A DNA stretch of 64,000 bases from Tilletia caries (lineage: Eukaryota > Basidiomycota > Exobasidiomycetes > Tilletiales > Tilletiaceae). Both the position numbers and the translations under genes were made by a program. This document shows positions 7,720 to 40,500 of the stretch, piece by piece. Below the pieces are notes generated by a model. That model did not search any database. It saw only the letters and a list, made by a program, of their open reading frames with translations, and was not told the origin of the DNA. The stretch spans positions 1,208,001 to 1,272,000 of the forward strand of contig JALUTQ010000003.1 in assembly GCA_032718865.1 (NCBI GenBank), written 5' to 3'. Each line of letters starts with the position of its first letter. The first letter of the stretch is position 1.

Positions 7720-8375
7720 CTAAAGTGATACAGTATTGGTGCCCATGGCGACGTCCTTCTCGAGGCCTTTACCGGTGACGTCCTGGTGCGCGACGGCTGA
7801 GGTGTTGATGCCAGAGGAGGGTGCGGACGGTGCGTGGAGACGCGGAGGTCCGTCGGCGTCGAGGAGCGAGGCGTTACCAGTATGATCGGCGAGCGAAATG
7901 AGAGCGGTCGAGCCAGACTGGCCGACGGTGAAGACGATTTGTGGGAGGGTCTGGGAGGGGGCACCGTTGGGGACAACAGTGGCGTTGGTGTTGGGCTTGA
8001 CGGTGGTGGTGGAGCTGTCGGGGAGTGCGTTCTTGGTAGGAGGAGTGACGTTGATGGCCTTGAGGTCAGGATGCTGAAGGTAATCTTGGTTGAGTCGGCA
8101 ATGGAGACGATGGCCTGGATGGGAACGCGTTCTCCTGTCAGAAGACGCTTCAGAGAGTGATCGCAGCCGATTCGCGCTACAGGCGGGAAATAGGAAAGAG
8201 GGGGGCAAGGTCGTCAGCAATCCGAAGCGCAGAACCAACCGGGCAGCTCGGGTTTCCGCTACACATACCGTGTCACCAGTGTCCTTCTTCAACGCGACTG
8301 TATATTCGCATGCACCACACCGGCCCCCGCCACCGCCGTCGCCACCGCCGGCCCCACCGACGAAAACACAGAATT
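7720..8375 (-). pseudogene. UDP-glucose dehydrogenase C-terminal piece joined to an unknown coding tail
   Basis: Reading leftward, codons near 8290 give ALKKDTGDT, then a GTATGT donor. A pyrimidine-rich CCTGTAG acceptor resumes in phase with RESAAITL, followed by a stop. KKDTGDTRESxAI is the signature around the hinge and C-terminal domain of UDP-glucose 6-dehydrogenase. From there, strongly C-biased codons continue in a shifted frame (KRLLTGERVPIQAI), then shift again near 8080 into HPDLKAINVTPP and a Ser/Thr/Asn-rich tail ending at a stop at 7720. The tail does not look like dehydrogenase. I read this as a decayed gene end, with the tail possibly from another gene. The frame changes could also be assembly errors. 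Confidence 0.5.
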
Positions 8376-24717: not shown

Positions 24718-27700
24718 TTATTGAGGATCCATCCCGAAAGAAATGCCTTCATCCTCATCCGAAGGCGGGAACATCGACTCAAAGCACCGATCACACGCCC
24801 GCGCCTGCTGATCATCCACCCCTTCCTCATACGCCGGAATCAGGAAGGACCGCTGACTGCAGTTCCAACACACCACCTGCCCGCACAGGCGACAGTGATG
24901 TCGCCGTCGCCAGATCCCGAACCAATCCCAACATACCGCGCACTTGTCCGCGTGGTTGTCGGGAACCCACACGGGGGCGTTGTAATCTTCGACCATCTTG
25001 AGCGGTTTAGCTGGCTGGGTTCCATTGGGCCCGCCTGCCATCGCCGGTGAGAGAAGACCGCCCAGACTGCCCGGGCTCGGGATTGCCGACGCGATCGATT
25101 GGAGCGAGCTCAGTCGATGTCTCTCCCGGATCACAACACCACTGACACCACCGCCACCGCCGCCGACAGAATCTGCCGCGACCGCAGTCGCTGAACTCGA
25201 TTCCGGTATTTGCTGCTCCGGCCCACCACCACCACTGGGATACCCATCGCCCGAGGCAGCATCGACCGTCGGGAACGGCTCCCCCTCGCGCAACGTCGGG
25301 AACGCCTTGCCCCCGCCCCCCTCGCCGCGCACCGCCGCAATGCTCGCCAAGCTACTCCCAAGAGGCATCGACAACCGTAACGCCGATGATTTGCCCGCAG
25401 CAACCGCCGCCGCCGCGTTCGAAGCCGTCTTTTGATGGTCCTTGTACAGCGACCGTCTCCGCTCTCTCTTCGCCTCGATCGAGTCTTCCTCCGCCCGCAA
25501 CGTCTGCCGCGCGATCATGTGCGCCTCCCTCGCCTCCCGGATCATGCTCATCCAGTCGTCCTTCGCCTCCTGGCTCTCGGCATACAGCGCGAAGCTCTTC
25601 TCCGGCGTGCGTAGCTCAAACGCATGCATCAGGCCTTCGGAAACGGACGCAGACGACGAGCCGCCGTGATAGTGATGGGTCATGTCAACGCTGACGACGG
25701 TGCAGTCTTGCAAGGCGATCTTGGCTCGGAACTGGAGAGAATGTGTCTGCATGTTGACGGGTGCCATCGACGTGGTGTTGGTGCCCGACTCAGCCGCGGA
25801 GGCCGAATGTGTCCGAACACGCGCCCCAAAGGCCGAGACCGCCGGTCCACCTGCGCTACTCCCATGATTCCCATGATGGGCCGGACCCGCCAGCTTCCTC
25901 GAGACACCAGCCAACGAGGATGAACCATTGGCCCAATCGGCTCCGAGGACAGACGCCAACCCAGCCCCGACCATCGCCTGCCACGCTGCGCTTGCAGACG
26001 ACTCCAACCCGCCATTCGTCGGACTTGCATACATGATGCAATCCGTGAAGAGAAAGAACTGGCGCGGTTGGATGTTCTTGCGGCACGTTTTCAGTAGGGC
26101 GCCCCGTTTGAGAAGAGAGCGACCGGGCACAATGAGAGGCTCGGTCAGGCCATTGAGCGATCGTTGGAGGTCTACCATGACGAGGACCATCTCGTGTGTT
26201 CGAATGTTGTCGTCACAGTCATGAGCAACTAGAGAAGGAGAAGATCCAAAGTGGAATGTGTGAGATCATCACACCTGAATCGGATAGGGGGTCAAAGCCG
26301 CGGAGAAAAGCTCACTTTGAGAGACCAGATTGAACGCCTTGACGAGGTCCGGCCGATCGGCATGCCCCTCGGGCGTGAACTTGACCAAATCACCAACCAA
26401 CATCTTATACCTCGTGATTCTCTGTACGATCGTCAACAAATGGGACTCAAACCCCAGGCCGAAGCCACCGGAACCGGACCTGCCAGCCTGTGCAGCCGAT
26501 TCGGCGGCGCGGAGAAACTTGGCAAAGGAGTCGTTCTGTTTCCGCTCGGCGTCGATCCGTGCGAGCGAGTTGGAGAACTGTTGAGCGAAGAGCTTGTACA
26601 TGCTCAGGAAGGGTGCAATGGGGACCAGAATGTCGCCGACGAGATGGTCCCTGGGATTCCACGCCTGTGCCGCGATTCGGGAGCCAGTGCTTGTGCTGGT
26701 GGCATCGCTGATGGCGGAAGAGGCACTGGGAGTCACGGAGGACGACGAGGAGGAGGATGGCATGTTGATGTCACTCCCACTACCTGATGAATCGCCACTG
26801 CTATCCACCGAGAGAGGCCGGGCGGGCACGGCTGATTCGACGACAATGGCGGGTTGTTGCTGGGCCTCCAGTCTGCGTTCGAGCTGAGCGAGGAGCTCCT
26901 TGTTGAGCGTGAAGATGTTGGTAAAGTTGCCAAAGATTTCTGCAATGGTCTTCTTGCTGAGTTGAGGACAGGGAGCACTCGTCTTGCTGGGCGGTGGTTG
27001 ACCGATGCTGGCCAATTGCATCGGTTTGAGGTAGTGCTAACGCGCCGCAAGCGGAGATTCAAAGAAGCAAGCTGTTCAGCAAAGAAGCGCTCCGTGGGAA
27101 TGAGAATGCAGAAGGAGAAATGGAAGACTCACCTCGTCGAGAAGCTTCAAGCTCTGCATGTATACCCTCTCTGTGTCGAGAAGTTCCATCGCGACGAATC
27201 TGCGCTTTGTCATGAGCATCTCGAACTCCTTGCCCATTCCGTAAGGTTCGGTCACCGATCGCTTGAGGATGCTCTTCGGTCGATTTGTAGACTTGGAGTG
27301 CTGTAGTTGGTGAGGGCGGGGCAGGTCTGGACTTGTGGGGGGTGAGTCTGAAATGCTGAGGGATGACCGTAAACGGGGCGATGGTGGGAGAGCGGGGAAT
27401 CTGCGGAGGTCGGAACGTGGTGAGGCAACGGACGAGGAGGAGTCGGAAAGGGTGGGTGAATGTGGCAAGGGAGCGCCGAGTGCTTCATCCTCCGGCAGTG
27501 ATTCGATGCTTGCGACGCTGACCATGCTGACGCGGTTGACCATGCTGGGTACGTTGGGGAGCGAAATTCTGCGACCAGTTGCTGCGATGGCGCCTGGTGC
27601 GATGAATCGTTTGGCCGCGAGCCCCGCGCCGCTTGCTGGGGAGGATGCGTTGGTTCCATGTGCGCTGCGACCTGCTACGAGGGTGGAGGCGAGTGCTGGG

Positions 27701-27834
27701 GAGAGGAGGGTGGGGGACAGGATGCGTTCTATGCTTGACTGGGATCCACAGGATGCTACCGAGGGCGGCCTTGAGGAGGCGAGCACAGGCAGATTGGGTG
27801 AGGATGAGGAGCCGCGTGATGATTTTGCTGCCAT
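24718..27834 (-). CDS. Rho/Cdc42 exchange factor with DH, PH and FYVE domains (Don1-like)
   Basis: Three exons (27834-27133, 27036-26316, 26228-24718) join in phase and give 977 residues. A disordered Ser/Pro-rich head (1-200) is followed by the DH domain (about 205-475: FVAMELLDTERVYMQSLKLL, ...LLTIVQRITRYKMLVGDLVK). The PH domain carries long insertions (KRGALLKTCRKNIQPRQFFL to SFALYAESQEAKDDWMSMI). A C-terminal FYVE finger (CAVCWDWFGIWRRRHHCRLC) is expected to bind PI3P on endosomes. The same order is found in FGD proteins and in Ustilago Don1, which activates Cdc42 during secondary septum formation. Orthology to Don1 is inferred from architecture. The Ser-rich insertion inside DH (near VDSSGDSSGSGSD) is long. 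Confidence 0.92.
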
Positions 27835-28338
27835 GATGGTTGATGCCGACTGTGGATATGTATATATGAGAGAATGGAAGCCCCTGATGCGTGAGATGCG
27901 TGATGCCCCTGGGGTGTGCTGCCTGTCGCTGCGGCTCCTGTCGCTGCTGGCTGGCTGTGGTTCTGCGCTTGCACGTGACGAGTGACGGGCTGGGTGTTGA
28001 CACTATGTATGTATGTACGAGTGAAGATGAAGATGAAGGTGAAGGTATGTAAGATCGAGGTCCAGAGAGGGGTGCCGGGTGAGGCGCTGAGTGAGATGAG
28101 GAGACGAGATGAGATCAAGCTGAAGCTGAATCCAAATTAAACCCTCGGAGCAAGCAACAACAACAACAACACCCACAGCCGGAAAAACTGCAGACACTGC
28201 TCTAGTGCCTCACCTCCCCACAAAGAACAAAGGGGTCCCCAGAGAGAGCTCTGTTTGCGCGCCCCTAATCTCTGTGTATGACAAGCGGCAGACTTTTCCA
28301 AAACTTAAGACTCGTAAAACATCGGCCCAAATGCCCAT

Positions 28339-28520
28339 CACTGCTACACCAGCAGACCTGGGGGACTGACAGGGAGGGTCCGGGGTCGGGACAGGTCTGG
28401 TATTCGACCAGGGCGGCATCCGGGATTGTCCTGACGGAGAAATCCCAGAGCTGTCCCAGAGGTACCGTCCAGGTACCATCCCTGGGCCGGGACAGTTCCC
28501 CTAACTTTAGTTAAGGGGTT
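28339..28520 (+). repeat. Left terminal inverted repeat and subterminal array of the CACTA element
   Basis: After the 20-bp terminal repeat, short words such as GGGAC, GTCCC, GGTACC and TCTGTCCC-like variants recur on both strands to about 28500. Subterminal arrays of this kind are where CACTA-encoded DNA-binding proteins attach. The right end has a similar array at 36360-36590. Confidence 0.75.
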
Positions 28521-28956
28521 ATAGGGCGGCTCTCGCCTTACGGCCGTAAGCTTTTTGCCATTCAGGCTCGTAGTTTGGGACTTTTCTTCGCAACTACCAA
28601 CACAACACACCATTCTGAATCAGTAGACCCTTGACCAAATCTAGTCCTGCAACTTCTGGCACAGGTTTCGTGGTTGTAGCATCAGAATTGACTGATCTGT
28701 CCTTGAGCCAAAGTTTGGTTTTTCCTTACATAAGCACAGAGTGCAGAAATCTTGCATACGTAATCAGTTCATTTCGACACTCGACAGACGACAACCAACA
28801 CCGCCAGCCTTTCTTCACGCTTCCATCGAAGCCCGACAAGCATCATGCGAATTGAACAATCCCCCCTCGATTTCTTTTTTTAACCGCTCTCTGCTCACCA
28901 AGGTTCAAGTTAATGATGCTCACCGCTGTTTTTGCTCTTTTTCTTGCTTAACCTGA

Positions 28957-29403
28957 TGGCTGATACCACTTACCCATACCAGTCTCTGCTTTGTTCCCAT
29001 TCTGAGTCCGGCCCAGCAGTCAGCACTCCCGAATTGTCATCCAAGGTGAGCCTCGTGTTTATACGCGCATCTGCATCAGGTGCTCCGGGTTAGGTCCTTA
29101 CTCACCCATTGGCCTTCAAGTCTTTACGACCCCAAGCGGTGGGTTTTCCCCCGACCCCCTCTCCTTCTTCTAACGGCTCTGACGCTTCATGAGTTAAAAT
29201 GGTGCTCATCACTGCATATCTTCGTACAGTCTGTTCTGTGTCACGGGTCACCACCTTTGACATCACACGCGCCTCCACCTTCCACTTCGACATTGCCAAC
29301 GTCAAGCCCGCCGAGGTCAATGTGTCCGTCGTCGGTGGCCACCTTCGGCGTCACCATTGTGCTTCTCCTCTCTCAAGTCGCCCAGGGTTCCATACTCCAA
29401 TAG
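28957..29403 (+). CDS. Possible small spliced gene in the left arm of the CACTA element
   Basis: An ATG at 28957 opens a short frame ending at a GTGAGC donor (SVSTPELSSK-like end near 29045). After a possible CGTACAG acceptor near 29230, a C-biased frame reads VTTFDITRASTFHFDIANVK and PAEVNVSVVGG, while another frame ends in VTIVLLLSQVAQGSILQ before a stop at 29403. The strong third-base bias suggests real coding history, but I cannot build one convincing exon chain. The 28520-30416 interval otherwise shows only low-complexity DNA, including a CCTGA pentamer run near 29425-29462. Function unknown. Confidence 0.25.
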
Positions 29404-30416
29404 TATGTTCAACACTGGACCTGACCTGACCTGACGGCTGACCTGACCTGACCTGACCTGATCTGACTTTCTTTCTGCTGTGCTCTTGCCTCTTCTATAT
29501 TCCCTTACCTTCGCATCAAGCTCTGTTGGCATTCCTTTGCCCATTCGTCTCCGGTCTCAGCCTTCACCCGTCTTCTACGTCCCTTCCGTCTGCTTCCCCG
29601 GCCGCTTATGTTTCCTATCCCCTAACCTCTCCTTCTGCATTAGCCTCACGCTTTTTTCTCCTCAGTCTTTTTAATCTTATCTTCATTGCGCTCGCAGCTA
29701 TTCTCCGTCTTGTTTGTCAATTGTCTCTCTCTGCGCGAAGCCATCATATGACATATCATTCTTTGCTTTCTGCTTCCTTGGTAGATACAGCCGTGCGGGA
29801 TGATTACGTGTGTGAAGTTCCTCAATCCCTTTTTCACGCAAGTTTGATCAACATTCAAAATGTTACATGGACAATGATATAGATGCTCGTAGCTACGATC
29901 GCAAGTCGCAGCCGCATGGCGAAGCAGACGAAGGGTAGTGAAGCTACCTTGAGCTTCTGCGTAGCCGTGCTGGGCTGAGATTCGGTGACCTTTCTGATAC
30001 AAAAGATTCGCGAAAAGGGGAGGGGGAGAGGACGCCCCAGTCACGTCTTCGCACATCTCTACCAGGTCATAAGGGTCTGAGGTCCACATCGAGTCTGAGG
30101 GACACCCTGGCCTCTGGGCTTCAGCCGACAGCCAGGTCACTATGGTTCCAAGGCGTAAGTTGATGCTACTTAACTTTGTTGACTAAGTCTGTATTTAAAT
30201 CCCACTCCCAGCCCCCAGCGACCTGTTATTCAACAAGGCGAAAAAGTTAGGGGAACACTCTGGTAAGGTACGCACCCAGGTCAGGAATCCTGGAGTATCC
30301 CAGAGGCGGACTCTCAGCACTGGTCAGCTCAATTCCAAGCATTCATAGAGACCACAGTGGTGCTAATATCTTCGATTAAGTTTGTGATAGCGAGAATTCC
30401 ATACATGTTCAGCGCG

Positions 30417-33400
30417 TCAGAGACTCCGAATCACATCTTCCAGGGATCGCGTGGCAGGGAGGACTTGATACATGTGATGCATTTCCCACCCAGATCGGCA
30501 AAGCGTATCGTTGAGGATGGCCGTTTGCGGGTCGTCGTCGATGTTGTGGCTGACCTCGTATGTTGTCGCACTGACTGTCTCGCGCTCTTGCCTTCGCAGT
30601 CGTGTGTTGGTGATGGGACACTCATGCGTCGCACAGTCGTGAACGATGTTGATTTTGTTGAGTATTGCCTGTTTCATGGTTGCGAGAAGTCAGGACTCAG
30701 GAGTGGGTCAGTGCTGTGTCGCAAAACGACTGGGAGATCATGTATGCACTTACTGTGATGGGAATGAGGAAATTCTCTTGTCCATAGCTGAGCTTCCGCA
30801 CGCCGTGAGCGTCAAGAGACACGGAGAACATTGGCTGCACAAGAGCAAGAGGTCCCTTTGCTCTGTCGGGATGCTGCTGCGGCAGAGAGACTGGGTCACC
30901 AAAGAGATGGACCACACGTACCACGCACGTCTGTTTATGAAGAAAGATGTGAGGCGTTAGCATGTATGCCAACGCGCTTTGACATCAATGATAACTCACC
31001 CATTGGAGAGGACCATCATCATCTGCGTCTGAGGGGATCCGAACCGCCGCTCGCACGAAAGACCCGGGATAAATGCGTTCCGAATCGTTCGAGATGGTGA
31101 ATCGCAGGGAGTGGTACTCGACCTCGGAAGAACCGGCAAAGCCTTCTTCGCCGAGCAAGATTTCAGCAGCGTCGGCAAACTGGCTGAACACCTTCACCCG
31201 CTGAACTTGCAGCTTCTGATAGGCACCTGATAGGAAAAAGAGACAAGAAGTTATCAGTGCGAAGCAGCAAAGAAGAGAAACGCAGACATGCTCACCTGGA
31301 ACCAGCTTCTTCTTCTTTACTTCCACCCCGTACAACTTCAGCAGCGTGCCTTCCTGAAAGCCGTACGCAAACCGGACCAAAGACGCAGCGTCGTTGCTTC
31401 TTTCGTCGAGAATGAGCTGCCGCACGAGTTCTTGACCGTAAAGTCTCAGTGCGATATCTCGAGACGGCGCTGCCCGATTTGAACACATGCTCGCATTTCG
31501 AGCGACCGTGTTAAATGACTCGTACCTTTCCGTAGCAAATCCCTTGGCCGGGCCGAAAAGCGCGATCCCCGCCTCCAGATGGGTCAAGAGATGATACTTT
31601 CTCTTGTTCTTCATCTGTTTTGGGTCCACAATCGCCATCGCGGCGAAGAAATTTCGCATTGCTGTTCTGAAGTTCGTCTGGAGGAAAGATTCATTTAGCA
31701 AGTATCTCAATAAATGCTTGAAGAGGACACTCACTTGGTACTCATCCCCGTCTTGCCTCGGCACCTCTTCGACCAGAATCAGACCGTGATTACCCCAGCC
31801 CATCTACACGCCTGCCACAGACTCTCTTCAATCTCTCCCTCATTGCGCAAGGGAAGGAGCACCAGCCACAGTACCTGTGCAAGAACGCGCATGTCTTTGC
31901 CGGTGAGGCCACCTGCGTTGTTAAGCAGGTAATAGCCGTCGAGCGTGATCGATTCACCAATGCCGTCGACGTCGATTGAAGAAAGGCGAGTCGCTACCTC
32001 CCGGAACAGCGTGCTCTTCTTTTTTGCTTCCCGAACGACCTCGGCGACGAGGTACTTGACCGGTCCAAGCAGCTATGTGTGGAGAGCCTCAATCGGAAGG
32101 CCCGAGCAAACCTGGAAACCAGTCACGTCTGTGAGACATGAGAACTTGTTCAGATCCAGGGCATGGAAGACAAAGCATGCCACACAACTCACCATACAGA
32201 CGCAGCAATGGACCGTACCAGTTTCCCGACTGAATCTCCCTCCTCTTGTCGTGCGCAGCCTGGTTGATGTGCTCTGTACTCCGGCCCTCTTGCCGCAGAT
32301 CCTTGCGCAGTTGGATGAGGTCGTCGCAGTACTTGGTCGTCAGCGAGTCTTTGATGCCGGTCTCCTTGCGAAGGGCAGTAAGATCGGACTGCGGTCTGCC
32401 TTTCTCGGCGGCATCGAGCTGTCCTTCTAGGGCTCCTTTGATGCTGCGCCGAACGAGCATTCGCAGTCTTGAGGTATCGAATGAAGCCGTCAGTTGTCGA
32501 GAGGGTGCTCTTGCTTCCGTCAACGTCGCACATGCGGCAGAAGCGATTGCCTGTGAGGCCGATGGAGGAAGTGAGGCTTGCGGCCATCGGGTTATCCGCC
32601 ATGACTGCGAGCAAGAAGGGTCGCACCATCACGTCTTCGCCAAGGGTATAGTCAAAGACGCATGTCGGATTCTCGTGCAGCTGCCTGCGAAAGAAGAGAG
32701 AACCAAAAACGTTGGAACGCCTGCCCGCCAAAGGTGCGAGTCAGGAAAGCAGAATGAACTCACATAAATTCGTCTACAAGGGAAGACAACTGGCCTTCTC
32801 CTGTCACATTCTTGCTGATCGAGACTAGCTTGATGTTGGAGTCCAGATCAAGCACGGAGCGGTCCAAAGTTGTGTTGGAAAGGTAGATTGCTTCGTGTTT
32901 ATTCCAGCGCTTCGATCTTGCACCAGAAAGGTCATCGATGAAGACCACGAGAGGCACACTGAATAGCCTTTTGCCATTGCACCGAATTCGTTCTGCGTTT
33001 GTGTGGGGAAGTTCTTGTTCACCGTCGACTGTCACAGCAACCATTCAAAGCAAAATATTTGAGTCAAGGAGTCGGAAGCACAATGCAACTGCTTCGATTC
33101 CGAACTTACCCAACGGCAACCTGCTCAACCGTCTCTCCGCATCGTACTTGAGTTGGTCTGCGCGGAACATGAGCCGGTCCTCCGTGAGCTGAAGTTCGTC
33201 CCCGTTCTGCCGTACGATTTTCGCCTCGCCGAAGATCTCGCCTTGCTCTCCTTCGAAGAAGCACTGCGGCCTCACCATCTGTTGTCCATGCTCGTATACC
33301 TCTTTGATCCAGAACTCCTTGCCATTCTCGAGCCGGATCATGGGTGCCACTGTTCGCTCGTCTGTGTTGTACGCGAGCGCTCCTCCGTCGCGAAGCTCTC

Positions 33401-34429
33401 GTACCACAGTCGTGCGCCGGGGAAGAAGGTGCATGTTTGGACGCACTGCAGAGTTGCAGAAGTCCTGTATGATAGAAAAGGTGATGGAGTAAGTGATCGC
33501 CTCAAATATACTATCACCTGCCTTGGCCCTTGACTGACCTCCTTAAGCAAGCTGGCGACCGAGTTCCGCCAAAACACATTGCCGTCGACGTCTGTAGAGC
33601 GAACCAACTTTTCCTTGCCTCGCAAGTAGATACGTGCCAATGCCTTTTTGCAGACGTTGATACTCGGAACGTTTGGCGCGCCAAGGGCTTCCGCCAGACC
33701 GAGCGCGTGCTCTAAGCTCTGCAACGAGTGAGCTTGGCGGGGACTGAGAAGGAAGCTGAGCGATGCAAAGATCTGAGGATCAAAGAGAAGAAGTCATCTG
33801 CTCAGCTCTGTGCAACACAGACAACTGAGCAACTGTGTAACTCACCCTTTTGTCTCGGAATGGTCCCCATGATCCAGCCTCTTGCCCAACCAGATGCCGC
33901 AACGGGTTTTCATGCGCGGCATGGGCATCGGCCATCTCCTGATCCTCCCGGCGCAACTCGGCCAGCTCAACCTCAAGACCTGCAATGACATCGTCCCTCT
34001 CCTCGGCCATCATCCAAAAGGCGTCCCTACTCTCCCCTTCGTACCATGTCGGCAAGGCAGCGTCGTCCGCGAATCCAGGAGCATCGTCTTCCTCATCGTC
34101 GTCTTGATCGCCATCAAACGCCATCGGGATGTCATCAGCAGGAATCTGAGGAACGAAGAGATGCGTCAGCCGTCGTCAGGTGACTAGCATGAAGGTCAAA
34201 GGGGACTCACCAATGGAGCCCGGGCAGGATAGAATGTCTTTGCGTTCTTCTGATGCTTCTTTGACGCAATGTGTGCTTGATGAGCCGCGGGCTTGAACTG
34301 GAAAGGCTTGGAGCCTTCATGCCTGCATACCAGACACTGTACCTGGACTGGAAAGCTGTCGGGAACGACCTTGAAGTGAGGGCCAATCTGGCGCTGAATT
34401 GCTTCTGGGTCTTTGCGTGGTGCTGGCAT
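30417..34429 (-). CDS. CACTA-type transposase-like protein with N-terminal zinc finger
   Basis: A chain of about a dozen exons on the minus strand starts at MPAPRKDPEAIQ (34429) and ends at a stop at 30417. The N-terminus holds a BED/C2H2-like finger (CLVCRHEG...HQAHIASKKHQ). Farther on come an acidic stretch, VVFIDDLSGARSKRWNKHEA, GEDVMVRPFLLAVMADNPMA, GNRFCRMCDVDG, YHLLTHLEAGIALFGPA, TERYESFNTV and APSRDIALRLYGQE, ending with a charged C-terminal domain. These blocks, in this order, belong to a large basidiomycete protein family carried by CACTA-like transposons. The finger probably reads the subterminal repeats. Exon borders were not all resolved, so minor breaks cannot be excluded. Catalytic acids are likely among the FIDD and GED residues (inference). 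Confidence 0.72.
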
Positions 34430-34575
34430 GCTGAGAAGGTGGTTGAGCTGCTGTGCACGGGTCTCCCCTCCTGAAAAAAGACTTGGTGGAATTTGCGTGT
34501 CCCACTCACTCACCACCACCACCGATCACCACCAGCCACAACACCACAGTCCACACAACACCACACAATCACAAC

Positions 34576-36152
34576 ATGGCTGGATCCGGATCGAGCGACT
34601 TCTCCATTCTGAACGAGACGCCGCCGCGTCGTGAAAACGGCCGCAACACAGCTGCAAACAACACAGACGACAACAGAGACGACAACAGAGACGACAACAG
34701 AGACGGCAGTCGGACTCCCTCCACCCCACGTCCGCAGAAGCGCAAGTTGTTGGAGATGGAGGAAGAAGATGAAGATGACGATGCTCCTTCGCGAATCAAC
34801 GAACTGCCATCGGACATTAAGGCCTGGGTCAGGAGGGTGAAGTTGAGCAAACTGCGCATTGACGATCTTGCGCAGTTCGGTCTAGATTATAAGACAGTGA
34901 GTTGATCTCCCCATCCCCTTCACCTTTGTGCGTTGTTGACCTTCACTTGACTTTCAACAGGAGACAGCCGAGGACTTCTGCCCTCTTCACCTGTACCGTC
35001 CGTACGCTCAATCGCTCCTTCAGACTCAGCTCGCCCAAATCGGCATTCAGACAACCAATCAGCTGCGCGAAGAGGTCGTCCCGCCCCTCAAGCGAGCTCG
35101 ATCAATGCTCACTCGCATCGAAGGAGATGTGAAGGATCTCAAGAAGGCAGCGGAGAGCAAGCTTACGGAGGCTGACACGGTGAGAGTTCTGGTTCATGCG
35201 CATGACAAGGACTGCGGGTGCTGAAGATGTTTCGTTTGGTCTTTGGAAGTTTGCCATCCAGCGCATTATAGCCAGTGTCTTCCACAGCGCAGACGTGCAG
35301 TTGTACAGCGAGAAGGGAGACCTGCCTAAGGTGATCACAGTGAGCTGAACATCACATTCCTCAGCGCTTGATGTATATGCTCAGGGTTACCTTTTCATTG
35401 CAGATCTATCTCGATCGCAATCCGGATCTCGTCGGTCCCGCCTTTGCTGAGCGATACAAGACCGGAGAAGTGCATTTCCTGGCTCTTGTCTCCTCCGTCA
35501 TCAAGAAGAAGGTCAACAACCTGCGCTCTCACATACGCGACAAGGTGAGCAATGAGTTTCACTTCTCCATGTTCGTGTGATCGATGATGACCTTCCACCT
35601 TCCCTTTGCAGATCCATTGGTCTCTCGGACTGGACGCGAACAGGTCGAAACAAGACCTCTTCGACCTCTACATGAAGCTAACAAAGAGCTACGGTGTGCC
35701 GGTGACGAAAGAGCGCGTGCTGCGCATAGCATACATCGTGAGTGAATGCATACATCTCGCCTTTGAGCGAGAGGATAGCACTGACAGCGATTCTTTGAAT
35801 GCAGCGGAGCTTTGCAATCAAGAACAACCCTCGAAAGGTGGACGGGGAGCCGGTAGATGGCTGGTGGGAGAAGTTGGACGAATACATCACCAAGCTGCTC
35901 TCCACTACCCGCAGAGACTCGGAGAAAGGCAGACGGTAAGTTTGAATGTATTCGTTTGCTTTCTGGATGTGTGCTGCATCTGATTTTTCCTCCCATGAAC
36001 TCAGTGTGCTCAATGCTACATACGATGCGGACAAGACGAAGTTTGGCGATTTCCCGCGACACGAGAAGGGCATCTCCAAGGCAGGCAGCGAGGACAACGA
36101 TATTCGCTCCGCTTTCAAGGCCGCTGCGACAGGCAACGCCAACGACCTCTGA
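34576..36152 (+). CDS. Unknown accessory gene of the CACTA element
   Basis: Seven exons (34576-34896, 34961-35179, 35250-35339, 35404-35544, 35612-35737, 35805-35935, 36005-36152) join in perfect phase to 391 residues with no stop. The N-terminus is polar with DDNR repeats and a basic-acidic switch (RPQKRKLLEMEEED). The middle is helical (LPSDIKAWVRRVKLSKLR, LREEVVPPLKRARSMLTRI). Then come IASVFHSADVQLYSEKGD, VSSVIKKKVNNLRSHIRDK and a basic C-terminus. I do not recognise a domain. The divergent placement 146 bases from the transposase gene suggests coordinated expression and a role like TnpA of En/Spm (binding element ends), but this is inference. An intact seven-exon frame suggests recent selection. 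Confidence 0.78.
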
Positions 36153-36359
36153 TCATCACCTCTCCATCGTTCAGCTCCGACTCTTCTTCTTCTGCCACTC
36201 TCACCACTCGCTGACTCGGGACTCCTCAAGGCTCAAATCCATGTTCTCCATGCTCGTTGGCAGTTCGCTCCATAGTCACCTGTGTTCTGTGACTCAAAAT
36301 CAAAGCTGTTGTGTACTTGTTTCTTTATGTATCGGCTGTGATTGCATTGACTGCATACT

Positions 36360-36593
36360 GGAAGGGGATCTGGGAGTGCTGATCTGGGGGGTCCGGTACA
36401 TCCCATGGGTCATCTGGGACGGTCCCGGGCATGTCCTGGAGCGGGCCCCAGGATTTCGGTCCCGGCAGTTCCCAGGATAGCGGAGGAAACGCCGCCGGGA
36501 CAGTCCCCCGCTGGCTGGGCCCATACAGATCTGGGACCGCCCCGGGAGATCCCGCGGGACCGCCACGACATGTCCCCGTGGTCTGCTGGTGTA
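36360..36593 (-). repeat. Right subterminal array and outer part of the right CACTA end
   Basis: Words GGGACGGTCCC, GGGCCC, CCCGGGA and TCTGGGAC recur in both orientations between 36360 and 36590. The array ends with GGTCTGCTGGTGTA, the first 14 bases of the right terminal repeat, where the MITE is inserted. Remaining bases of the terminal repeat lie at 37234-37239. Confidence 0.75.
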
Positions 36594-37231
36594 CCATGGG
36601 GGTTGTTTTAAGGGGTGTAAAGCGCTTCTGGAACGCACGTGTTTACCCCATGTTATAATTTTCTATTTTGTTCCGCTGATTTGGGTGTTAAAACACCTTT
36701 CTAATAGTGTTAAAACCCAGTATAGGCATAGTGATCACGTGACTGCTGCAGCGACCCGGGAAGTGAGACTAGGCGTCTCCAGACGCCTTCCTCACCGCCA
36801 CCACCCTGCTCGACACCACGGCCCTCACCACACCCACCCGCCATGCCAAGCCAACCTCAACATGTCATCCACGGGTAGCAAAACTGTAAATCGAGGGTTT
36901 CTGTCTTCAGAGAGCAGCATCAATTGAGTGTGGAAGCAGCTGTGAACCTTTTGAGATGCAGGGCAGAGACTCTGAGACCACCGAGCAGACCCATTCTAAT
37001 TAGAGAAACTGAAAGTCTATCTTGTCTTCGGTTCTAGCAGCCGTAGAACAACCTCCCAGGGGGTCCAATACGTCATTGTTTTCAGACATGATTCCGCACC
37101 ACGTAAAACGCTGCGATTTTTGCCGAGCCCTTAAAACTCCTGCACAACAGGGATGTTTTGAGAGAACCGTAAAATCATTGTAAAACAAATTATTACGAAG
37201 CGCTTTACACCCCTTAAAACAACCCCCATGG
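36594..37231. mobile_element. Tc1/mariner-type MITE, 638 bp
   Basis: A 35-base perfect inverted repeat (36594-36628 and 37197-37231, beginning CCATGGGGGTTGTTTTAAGG) borders the element. TA dinucleotides flank it at 36592-36593 and 37232-37233, and removing element plus one TA restores the CACTA terminus exactly. The interior is AT-rich, has no coding capacity, and contains short repeats of TTAAAACAC/TTAAAACCC near 36685-36720. TA duplication points to Tc1/mariner mobilisation. Confidence 0.9.
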
Positions 37232-37579
37232 TAGCAGTGCATCGCGTCCGTGTTCCCGACTCATCACGTGCGGCACGCCACACCCTCAGTTGCTCGGCCG
37301 CGCTGAAAGCAGGTCTCGGGCTTCGCCGATGTGGGTAGTGGGTTGTTGTCACGGTATCTTGGTTTGGATCACCAGCGGATCACCATTTTCGCGGATCGCC
37401 AGTGACCCAAATCAAGAAATGTTGGCTCGATCATCATTTATTACTAAGAGATCCACGCTTTCTTGATGATCATAGTCACTGCGCCGATACTCTCTCTCAG
37501 CAATGCATCCGTTTTCTCCTTCATCTGAACCAGTGCGCATATCCAGCTTGCCTTCCTCATCTGACCATCAAAAACCAGT

Positions 37580-40500
37580 ATGGCGGCAACGCGGAGCGCA
37601 CCAACATCCGGCAGTACCGCAACAGCCTCTGCTGTTGTCGAGTCGTTGACGACAGCAGCCGTGCGGAATGCCAACGACGTGCAAGCGGCAGTCAATGCCG
37701 CGGTGGTACTTGGGGTCGAGGCGCGGCCGAAAGGCACATCAAAGACATATGAGCCACGGCAGCAGAGATGGAAGGTGAGTGTGCCGTACGCGCAGCGTAG
37801 ACCTAAGATTTAAGAAGAGGTCAAAATTGACAGGCATTCCCTTCGTTTCTGATAGGAATTCTGCGAACGCCGTCAATTTGCGGACGGCCTGGTAGTGAGC
37901 GAGGGAAAGGTCTTGTTGTGGCTGCAGGAAGACATAGTTCCGACGGGGAACAAGAACAAAGCCAAGCGGAAGATTCCTGCGGAGGAGGTGGTCGAGGAGG
38001 TGGCCAAGGACGCGTCTACCTCTGCCCCTCCAACGCGCAAGAAGGGCAAGGGCAAGGGCAAGGGCAAGGCAAAGCAAAACGCGCCTGCGACTGCGACGGA
38101 TGTCGTTACGGAGCCGGCCGACGAATCGCCTGTGGCTGCTCCAGCGCCGCTCGCCGCCAAGACGATCGACGGATACGTCACAGCTGCAGTCAACCTATAT
38201 CAGCAGCAGATCTCTTTGGGCGTCCACACCGGCAAGCACCCCCGTGGCGATGCGCTGGCCAGCTACCTGGACAGTCTCAAGCGCGACACACGCAAACGAA
38301 AGCGCGAAAACTTTGAAGATCGAGCGGCAGGAACCATCCAGGATGGATATTCTCGAGAGATATACGAGCGCATCAACAGACACCTGCTGGAGAACCCCTC
38401 GCAAAACAACGCAGCACGAACCCGACTCGATCACCTTTTCGGATTCTCCATCATGGCACGGGGCGAAAACATGCGACAGGCCCAGCTCGCCGATCTGTTT
38501 GTCCTTCCCCTTTCAAACGAGGGAGCGCAAGATGCGTCCGCCGTAGTGTTGATCATGGACAACGGCAAGACCAACGCCTATGGTAGGATCGACTACGGTG
38601 GATGCATGAGGGCGAAAAATGCGTCCGAATGTCCGCACAATGCCCTTGCTTTCTCTCTTTTCCAGCGCTTTCACATCGACAACGAGCCCTTTCCCACCTT
38701 CCAACGACGCGAAAACTGGTACCATATTCACCTCCTCGTGCACGAGGAGCGGACCGTCGCTATGCAGTAAAACAACCACTACCACATCATGAAGAGGATT
38801 CTTGGGTCGCTTGATATCCACACATCCAAGAAGACTCATTTGAACCGAGGCGGAGCAGCACGGCATGCGGAGGACAGTGGGGCGAGCGAGGGTGAGATTC
38901 GTAGGGCAGGTCGATGGAACGTCCAGCAGATGCAAGGATGCTACCTCACAGGCCTTCCTCGAAAGGCCATGCGCGCCCTCGCAGGATTCCCGACGAAGCC
39001 AGGAGCTTACCATCTTCCCAGAGCCACCATCAATCCTCCCCCAGCTCTCCTCAACAAGATCTGGCCGGATGTCGAAGGCGCACTCCTCGGAATCGAGCAA
39101 GGCCGCCTGGAGAAGGACCTGGCGGCGCAGGGCTTCCTCCGCCTACTCGTCTATCTGCGCACGGTTCTCGTCCAGGATGCTGTTGTCATGCGCAAGCAGT
39201 TCCCCCAACATCCAATCTTCCAGCACACCATCTTTGCCGATCCACTCTTCATCGACTATGCAAAGAACCTCGAAGTAGCGCTGGACAAGAACGAGCGACC
39301 TCTTTCCGTTTCCGTACAGGAGATCTTGCCCGAGGTCCATCGATACCTTCTGGATATGCAGCGCGACCAGCAAGCCGCACACCTCGTCACCCAGCACACC
39401 AACAGCACCATTTTTGCAGCTCGCTGGTCTCGTCCAAGGCGCCTTTACCTCCATCCTCAACGAGGTCGACTCTCTTGCCAACAGGGAAGTGAAAGTGACC
39501 GTCCATATCGAGCAGCATCAGCAGCGCACCGGCTCTTCTCCTGTCGCTGTCGCAGCCCTGGCTCAATCAGTCGGTGAGTCCTCCGACTGCCGCACATGCT
39601 CCCCCCTTCTCAGACTATCCTTCTTATGACCTTCTTGCTCTCCATCTCTTCTTCACCAGCTGCCCCTTCTTCTACACTGCCGCGACAGCTCCTGGGCCTT
39701 CCCACAACAGCCGCCATCGCCTCCTCGTCTTCTCCTTTGGTTCCCGCTCTCGCCCCTGTCTCGCCCTTCCCGTCAGCTGCTCCGCTCTTGGCTTCAGCTT
39801 CCACGACTTCTTCTGCTCTCGTTCTCGCCTCCTCTACACCTGCGGTTATCACGCCTCCTTCTCCTTCTCCACCTGCTCGCGCCCTCACCGTTGCGCCTCA
39901 TTCGTCAGCCGCTGTCTCTGAGGATTCATCAGCTGCTGTGGTGCGTATCTGCTCGTGTGTGCTTGCTTGCGTGTCGTGTCTCATCCTCTCTTACTGACTT
40001 CACTTCACTTCCTTTGTATTATCACCTTTGCAGCGCGATGGTATGTTACATGTTGTGGCTGGCTCGTTGTGACTCGCTCGCTCCGAGAGTGTACACTGAG
40101 TTTTGAAGCTGATCCGCGTGCTTGCCTTCCTGCTCTAGACCGTCTCTCCATCACCAGCAACGAGGACGAGAACATCGACCACCATGTGGAGTCAGAACAG
40201 CAGCAGCAGCGCTCAGAGCAGCCCCCTCTACTTCTCCCCTCCCCCTCGTCCTCGTTGCCATCTCAGTCTCCAGCATTTGCTCTGCCTCTGCGAGGAGCAG
40301 CGGCAGCAGCAGAAACGGAGGAGGAGACGGTGCCGATATTTCAGCAGAGCCGCGCGTTGACAAGCATAGTTCACGTGTGGCAAGAGTACGAGAAGGGCAT
40401 CAACCACGGACCGGCGGTGCGAGACTTGGAGGCTCGGTGGCAGCACAAGTGGAGGACAGACACGAAGAGTCGGAAATTTTTCTCTCAGCGTAACAAGATA

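What the first reader, a model, noticed from the sequence alone, without database searches (positions are those of the whole stretch)
28339..37239. Complete CACTA-type transposon whose right terminal repeat is split by a MITE
The 20-bp left end CACTGCTACACCAGCAGACC is matched perfectly by the right end only after removing a 638-bp TA-flanked MITE. The outer CAT duplication then also fits. The element carries a zinc-finger transposase-like gene and a divergent seven-exon gene of unknown function, both readable without obvious breaks. Because the MITE hides the end, standard repeat searches could miss the element. It may represent an undescribed two-gene CACTA family.
Basis: partly seen in the sequence, partly recalled or inferred. 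Interest (0 to 1): 0.9.

Follow-up and report, generated by a model that had tools for sequence, protein, structure and literature searches.

The report
Two-gene transposon inside a CACTA MITE
In a bunt-fungus (Tilletia) genome, an 8.2-kb two-gene jumping gene that duplicates the letters TA jumped into the end of a small CACTA-type element, so the two insertions together looked like one bigger transposon with longer ends.

Summary
The 638-bp 'MITE' is the CACTA-type element. Its own end is CACTGCTACCATGGGG (88 exact matches in the genome, reversed control 0). Of 15 other copies examined, 14 have equal 3-bp flanks, as here (CAT). An 8,245-bp two-gene transposon (28347-36591) jumped into the TA of that MITE's left end. 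The 20-bp 'terminal repeat' is 8 bp of MITE end plus 12 bp of the transposon's own end, CACCAGCAGACC. That end recurs next to TA (53 of 56 ends). Joined flanks of 5 of 18 other two-ended copies match uninterrupted empty sites with one TA. The transposase has the motifs of the EnSpm/CACTA-Mirage-Chapaev-Transib group, but this copy is broken. The divergent seven-exon gene is open and shows purifying selection. Its relatives sit head-to-head with transposase matches at 11 of 14 other loci, and all 12 database hits are Tilletia. Best reading: a new TA-targeting EnSpm-like family with a genus-restricted, TnpA-like companion. Novelty is moderate: a new member of a known kind.

The parts
28336..28338 (.). 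CAT, left target duplication of the CACTA MITE
   Evidence: 14 of 15 other MITE copies examined have equal 3-bp flanks
28339..28346 (+). CACTGCTA: left end of the CACTA MITE, cut off from the rest by the large element; the TA is the large element's target
28345..28346 (.). TA, left target duplication of the large element
28347..36591 (+). Large two-gene transposon, 8,245 bp including a nested repeat
28347..28358 (+). Left terminal inverted repeat CACCAGCAGACC
28347..28495 (.). Left subterminal arm, GGGAC-rich (4 of the 12 counted on both strands)
   Evidence: 12 GGGAC in both arms (360 bp); letter shuffles mean 1.5, largest 7 of 2000
28496..30286 (.). Nested insertion; its own inverted ends TTCCCCTAACTTT run 28496 to about 30254, plus about 31 bp of extra sequence not in the C1 and C28 copies
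32465..34429 (-). Transposase gene, exons 1-6 (34211-34429, 33846-34145, 33539-33772, 33110-33464, 32764-33028, 32465-32684): C2H2-like motif, first D (FIDD), second D (MADNP), CxxC (CRMC)
30985..32464 (-). Transposase gene, rest: one in-frame stop and two apparent frame breaks; HxxxH (HLLTH) and E (ATERYES) present
34576..36152 (+). Second gene, seven exons (34576-34896, 34961-35179, 35250-35339, 35404-35544, 35612-35737, 35805-35935, 36005-36152), 391 aa, open
36381..36591 (.). Right subterminal arm, GGGAC-rich (8 of the 12); its last 180 bp or so shared with short non-autonomous copies
36580..36591 (-). Right terminal inverted repeat (GGTCTGCTGGTG on +)
36592..36593 (.). TA, right target duplication of the large element
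36592..37239 (+). Remainder of the CACTA MITE, from TACCATGGGG to its right end CCCCATGGTAGCAGTG
37240..37242 (.). CAT, right target duplication of the CACTA MITE

Best explanation
Two successive cut-and-paste insertions are seen. First, a roughly 650-bp CACTA-type MITE (ends CACTGCTACCATGGGG) inserted with a 3-bp duplication (CAT). Second, an EnSpm-like transposon (ends CACCAGCAGACC, GGGAC-rich subterminal arms, divergent transposase and companion genes) inserted into the TA inside the MITE's left end and duplicated that TA. A further repeat inserted near the left end, before or after. I infer that the DDE transposase cuts at CACC...GGTG and joins staggered cuts at TA, and that the companion protein binds the subterminal arms like plant TnpA. 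The transposase of this copy is now broken, so the copy could move only in trans. Shown: boundaries, TA and CAT duplications, nesting order, copy family, motifs, broken frame, companion-gene conservation. Inferred: catalysis, companion binding, mobilisation of the short copies.
For: Large-element ends: 49 exact TACACCAGCAGACC, reversed control 0. With up to 2 mismatches there are 56 ends, 53 preceded by TA; one two-ended copy has TC/TC as a direct repeat, so the dinucleotide is target and not terminus. Flanks outside TACACC differ in the other copies, including the C1 and C28 copies whose left 156 and 155 bp are 98% and 99% identical. Joined flanks with one TA gave uninterrupted matches for 5 of 18 other two-ended copies (four with 100% matches, L031 at 98%). 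MITE: 88 exact CACTGCTACCATGGGG, reversed control 0, the window giving only its right end; equal 3-bp flanks in 14 of 15 other copies examined, of 39 listed. Those uninterrupted MITE ends are also the window element's empty site (CACTGC-TA-CCATGG). Motifs DD, DNP, CxxC, HxxxH and E in homologues. Companion gene head-to-head with transposase matches at 11 of 14 other loci; dN/dS 0.144 (companion) and 0.102 (transposase exons 1-6) against a diverged copy. Subterminal GGGAC excess.
Against: No empty site of the window locus itself was found in this one genome: its joined-flank block gave no match, with 40 of 365 candidates scored. The empty-site argument for the window rests on other MITE copies. 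Thirteen of the 18 other joined-flank blocks gave no match either. Three of 56 ends lack TA, and the pattern itself contained TA. The Pfam match to Transposase_21 is below the curated cut-off (E 0.0089 for the window protein; 4 of 10 homologues, best E 0.00049). Structure models of transposase and companion were too poor to use (pLDDT 47.5 and 54.2). One companion locus (C30) is on the same strand as its transposase match, and two have no match nearby (one search scored 99 of 155 candidates). Companion binding is untested.
Confidence: 0.93

Rival explanations
1. One reading: a CACTA element with 20-bp ends and a 3-bp CAT duplication, later split at its right end by a TA-inserting MITE.
For: The 20 bp match exactly and CAT fits.
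Against: None of the other ends printed has CACTGC outside TACACC; 5 of 18 other copies have single-TA empty sites; 14 of 15 other MITE copies examined carry CACTGCTA as their own end with equal 3-bp flanks, the fifteenth has a changed first base and unequal flanks.
Confidence: 0.02
2. The element belongs to the recently named ESTA lineage (EnSpm-like with TA duplications) described from rust fungi.
For: TA duplication and CMCT-type motifs match the published description (passages and section 16 of PMC12730594; motifs).
Against: The 10 transposase homologues found include no rust protein; outside Tilletia they are two Agaricomycetes and one chytrid (capped at 7998 candidates).
Confidence: 0.3
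3. The companion gene is an unrelated host gene captured once, with no role in transposition.
For: No Pfam family over its cut-off and no solved relative; relatives found only in Tilletia (12 of 12).
Against: It stays next to transposases whose matched exons are only about 30-68% identical to this one, shows purifying selection like the transposase, and is open here while the transposase is broken.
Confidence: 0.12

Closest known systems
ESTA, EnSpm-like transposons with TA duplications (PMC12730594)
   Same: 2-bp TA duplication; D, D, CxxC, HxxxH, E motif order of the CMCT group
EnSpm/CACTA
   Same: CAC...GTG ends, GGGAC-rich subterminal arms, weak Transposase_21 match
   Different: The fungal EnSpm families of PMC12730594 make 3-bp duplications; this makes 2 bp (TA). 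The surrounding MITE, by its ends and 3-bp duplication, is the CACTA-like one
Plavaka A/B
   Same: Agaricomycotina group with the C(2)C and H(3-4)H motifs (PMC12730594, passages)
   Different: Ends TGT...ACA or CATCA...TGATG there, CACC...GGTG here; no Plavaka Pfam match in this genome (where no control rang either)
Maize En/Spm TnpA + TnpD, and SmTRC1 (PMC1636069, passages)
   Same: Transposase plus second protein; SmTRC1 shows a 2-bp direct repeat in 7 of 14 copies
   Different: In En/Spm the proteins come from one alternatively spliced unit (passage); here they are two divergent genes; no sequence similarity shown

Membership tests
[quoted passage not shown]
   Window FIDD, MADNP, CRMC, HLLTH, ATERYES; homologues: first DD 8 of 8 and E 8 of 8 of those covering the columns (several are near-identical), D449, C468, C471 at 90% or more, H724 and H728 invariant
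[quoted passage not shown]
   CACC...GGTG with TA
EnSpm/CACTA (large element) | 3-bp target duplication (fungal EnSpm in PMC12730594) | tested here: not met
   TA, 2 bp, with single-TA empty sites for 5 of 18 copies and a TC/TC copy
EnSpm/CACTA (large element) | Transposase_21 domain over its curated cut-off | tested here: not met
   E 0.0089, 15.7 bits against 28.6; 18.8 bits for P0007
EnSpm/CACTA (the MITE) | CACT ends with 3-bp duplication | tested here: met
   14 of 15 other copies examined, plus the window
EnSpm/CACTA (the MITE) | Mobilised by an EnSpm transposase | not testable with these tools
   No autonomous partner seen; the one 6-kb copy fetched holds a nested MULE-like element instead; an 11-kb pair on C4 was not fetched
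ESTA | TA duplication | tested here: met
ESTA | Transposase groups with ESTA in a tree | not testable with these tools
Plavaka | PF18759 match | tested here: inconclusive
   No match in the genome or the window protein, but no control genome rang either

The most novel reading that the evidence does not exclude
A separate branch of the EnSpm-like transposons, so far in bunt fungi, that has swapped the 3-bp CACTA duplication for TA and depends on a genus-restricted TnpA-like partner encoded head-to-head with the transposase.
Probability: 0.35. Interest if true: 0.5.

Novelty: new member of a known kind. Interest (0 to 1): 0.36.

Why it matters
It is a worked warning. Two nested insertions can fake a single element with longer ends and a different target duplication, and only other copies and empty sites expose it. 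It also defines a TA-targeting EnSpm-like family in Tilletia with a conserved companion gene that has no named relatives, a tractable case for asking what the second protein of such transposons does.

Tried and rejected
A palindromic target CACTGC-TA-GCAGTG: I first took the extra inverted letters for a palindromic target. Flank symmetry in other copies was not significant without the window (shuffle fractions 0.16-0.32), and the palindrome occurs nowhere else (0 matches). It is simply the two ends of the MITE. An autonomous partner for the MITE: the 6-kb copy on C7 (GGT/GGT) proved to hold a nested MULE-like element with its own ends; other wide pairs of ends were not all fetched. A TA duplication as an artefact of searching with TA in the pattern: eased by allowing mismatches (53 of 56 ends) and by the TC/TC copy. 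Structure prediction: both models too poor, so no fold search was run. Solved structures by sequence: best E 0.93 and 0.07, nothing used. The ends of the diverged copies on C3 (1173-1181k) and C7 (76-82k) could not be placed. In print: searches were listings; passages were seen of PMC12730594 (plus its section 16), PMC9674265 (nothing on this), PMC9172201 (0 hits for CACTA, EnSpm and MITE) and PMC1636069. I saw no description of this family in these, but most journals are not held.

Full report
What is there. The window lies in a 38.1-Mb genome of 40 contigs. The closest proteins of both genes are from Tilletia caries, T. controversa and T. laevis, so it is a wheat-bunt fungus or close kin. 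A 38.18-Mb T. caries assembly is reported in PMC10684912 (start of abstract seen).

Boundaries of the large element. The 14-mer TACACCAGCAGACC occurs 49 times in the genome against 0 for the reversed pattern. In the other copies the letters outside TACACC differ, and none has CACTGC there. That includes the two long relatives on C1 (left 156 bp, 98% identical) and C28 (155 bp, 99%). Of 56 ends found with up to two mismatches, 53 follow TA. One two-ended copy on C22 is flanked by TC on both sides as a direct repeat, which shows that the dinucleotide is target and that the element starts at CACC. Apart from the window, C1 and C28, 18 copies have both exact ends: 15 span 558-610 bp and three span 2.1, 3.1 and 7.0 kb. 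I joined the flanks of these 18 and of the window around one TA. Five of the 18 blocks (L031, L035, L058, L062, L067) matched whole, uninterrupted places elsewhere: four with 100% matches, L031 at 98% over 142 nt, all listed whole-block matches at 97-100%. The other 13 and the window block did not match. Only 40 of 365 candidates were scored, so this is a lower bound.

The MITE is the outer element. The 638-bp segment has 39 other places, 32 of full length, in a search that scored 40 of 74 candidates. When I looked outside its TA in other copies, the five first examined read CACTGC-TA on the left and GCAGTG on the right. CACTGCTACCATGGGG occurs 88 times (45+, 43-), reversed control 0. The window contributes only its right end, as expected if its left end is interrupted. 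Of 15 other copies examined at both ends, 14 have identical 3-bp flanks (TGT, AAT, ATG, TAT, ATA, TAC, CGT, AAG); the exception, L106, also has a changed first base. The MITE is thus the CACTA-type element with a 3-bp duplication. The window reads CAT-CACTGC-TA-[large element]-TA-CCATGGGG...CAGTG-CAT. The uninterrupted CACTGC-TA-CCATGG of the other copies is the empty site of the large element's insertion.

A third insertion. From 28496 to about 30286 the window has sequence absent from the C1 and C28 copies. Its first 105 bp match 37 other places at 96-99%, and in five loci compared the likeness runs on for 1.4 kb or so, up to the end of the stretch held, interrupted by about 190 bp that the window lacks. 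It has short inverted ends (TTCCCCTAACTTT). About 31 bp at its right side remain unexplained.

Transposase. Reading the minus strand exon by exon gives a C2H2-like motif (Pfam match below cut-off) followed by FIDD, MADNP, CRMC, HLLTH and ATERYES. In the homologue alignment the first aspartates are in 8 of 8 covering sequences, the glutamate in 8 of 8, the second D and both Cs at 90% or more, and both Hs invariant; several of the sequences are near-identical. This is the motif order given for the CMCT group in PMC12730594 (passages and section 16 read). Pfam gives only a sub-threshold Transposase_21 match. The window copy has one in-frame stop and two apparent frame breaks. The C28 copy has exon matches without stops but carries three long insertions, and the C1 copy has an internal deletion that runs the transposase into the companion gene. 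Related copies on C7, C4 and C15 lie in open frames of up to 564, 334 and 384 aa. Homologues outside Tilletia are Ceratobasidium, Pilatotrama and Phlyctochytrium (3 of 10 hits).

Companion gene. Seven exons, 34576-36152, 391 aa, open. There is no Pfam family over its cut-off (run on a 401-aa version with one mis-set splice) and no solved relative (best E 0.07). The model of a homologue is helical but poor (pLDDT 54.2). In the genome it has 15 loci including the window (clustered by me). Of the other 14, 12 have a transposase match in the same element or within about 5 kb (C28: 16 kb, because of an insertion). Eleven of these are head-to-head, one (C30) is on the same strand, and two (C39:1.07M, C27) have none, which scored 99 of 155 candidates. 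Several of these loci are recent duplicates (C7 and C4 97.6-98.8% identical where compared), so they are not independent. Against a diverged copy on C3, dN/dS is 0.144 for the companion (374 codons, with one internal stop in the other copy) and 0.102 for transposase exons 1-6 (475 codons; dS 1.77 is near saturation, exon 5 was about half aligned and exon 6 only in six blocks). Against the C28 copy the values are 0.145 and 0.13, on 21 and 16 changes. A profile search found 12 proteins, all from Tilletia (T. caries, T. controversa, T. laevis, T. indica, T. maclaganii, 7987 candidates scored).

How it works. The arms carry 12 GGGAC on both strands in 360 bp, where letter shuffles of each arm give 1.5 on average and at most 7 in 2000; the 6-kb middle also has 12. 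Subterminal arrays, a DDE transposase and a second protein recall maize En/Spm (array recalled; proteins from PMC1636069 passages: tnpA and tnpD both essential, TnpD stabilising the DNA binding of TnpA). I infer the same division here; binding is untested. Short copies share the last 180 bp or so of the right arm and are probably moved by the same proteins (inference).

Verdict. The element is real and not described in what I could search, but it is a TA-targeting EnSpm-like family nested inside a CACTA MITE, not a CACTA element split by a MITE. Placement in ESTA or beside it is open. Scores: interest 0.36; new member of a known kind.

Noticed in passing
window 28496-30286: Nested repeat (first 105 bp at 37 other places, 96-99%) with ends TTCCCCTAACTTT, plus about 31 bp on its right that neither relative has.
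   Followed up: partly
window 37895-38770: Open frame with an NDC10_II match (E 1.9e-18), as in Crypton-like tyrosine recombinases (recalled), just right of the MITE.
   Followed up: no
window 26269-27834, minus strand: Reading frames that look like a RhoGEF-type host gene left of the element (recalled resemblance, not searched).
   Followed up: no
L108 (C7:1070480-1076520): A MITE-family copy (GGT/GGT) holding a nested MULE-like element with a 785-aa SWIM/MULE frame and ends TGGACGCCC...GGGCGTCCA; C23 (L109) has a short insert with related ends at nearly the same site.
   Followed up: partly
L021 (C1:1263001-1270500): A relative with an internal deletion joining the transposase to the companion gene, plus an inserted GC-rich stretch; another, oppositely oriented copy end lies about 305 bp to its left.
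   Followed up: partly
C39:1069934-1072171 and C27:357300-357577: Companion-gene relatives without a transposase match nearby.
   Followed up: no
two-ended copies: Pooled half-sites next to TA favour G outward (26 of 40), a CTAG-like target preference; the window's two half-sites, included here, are MITE ends.
   Followed up: partly
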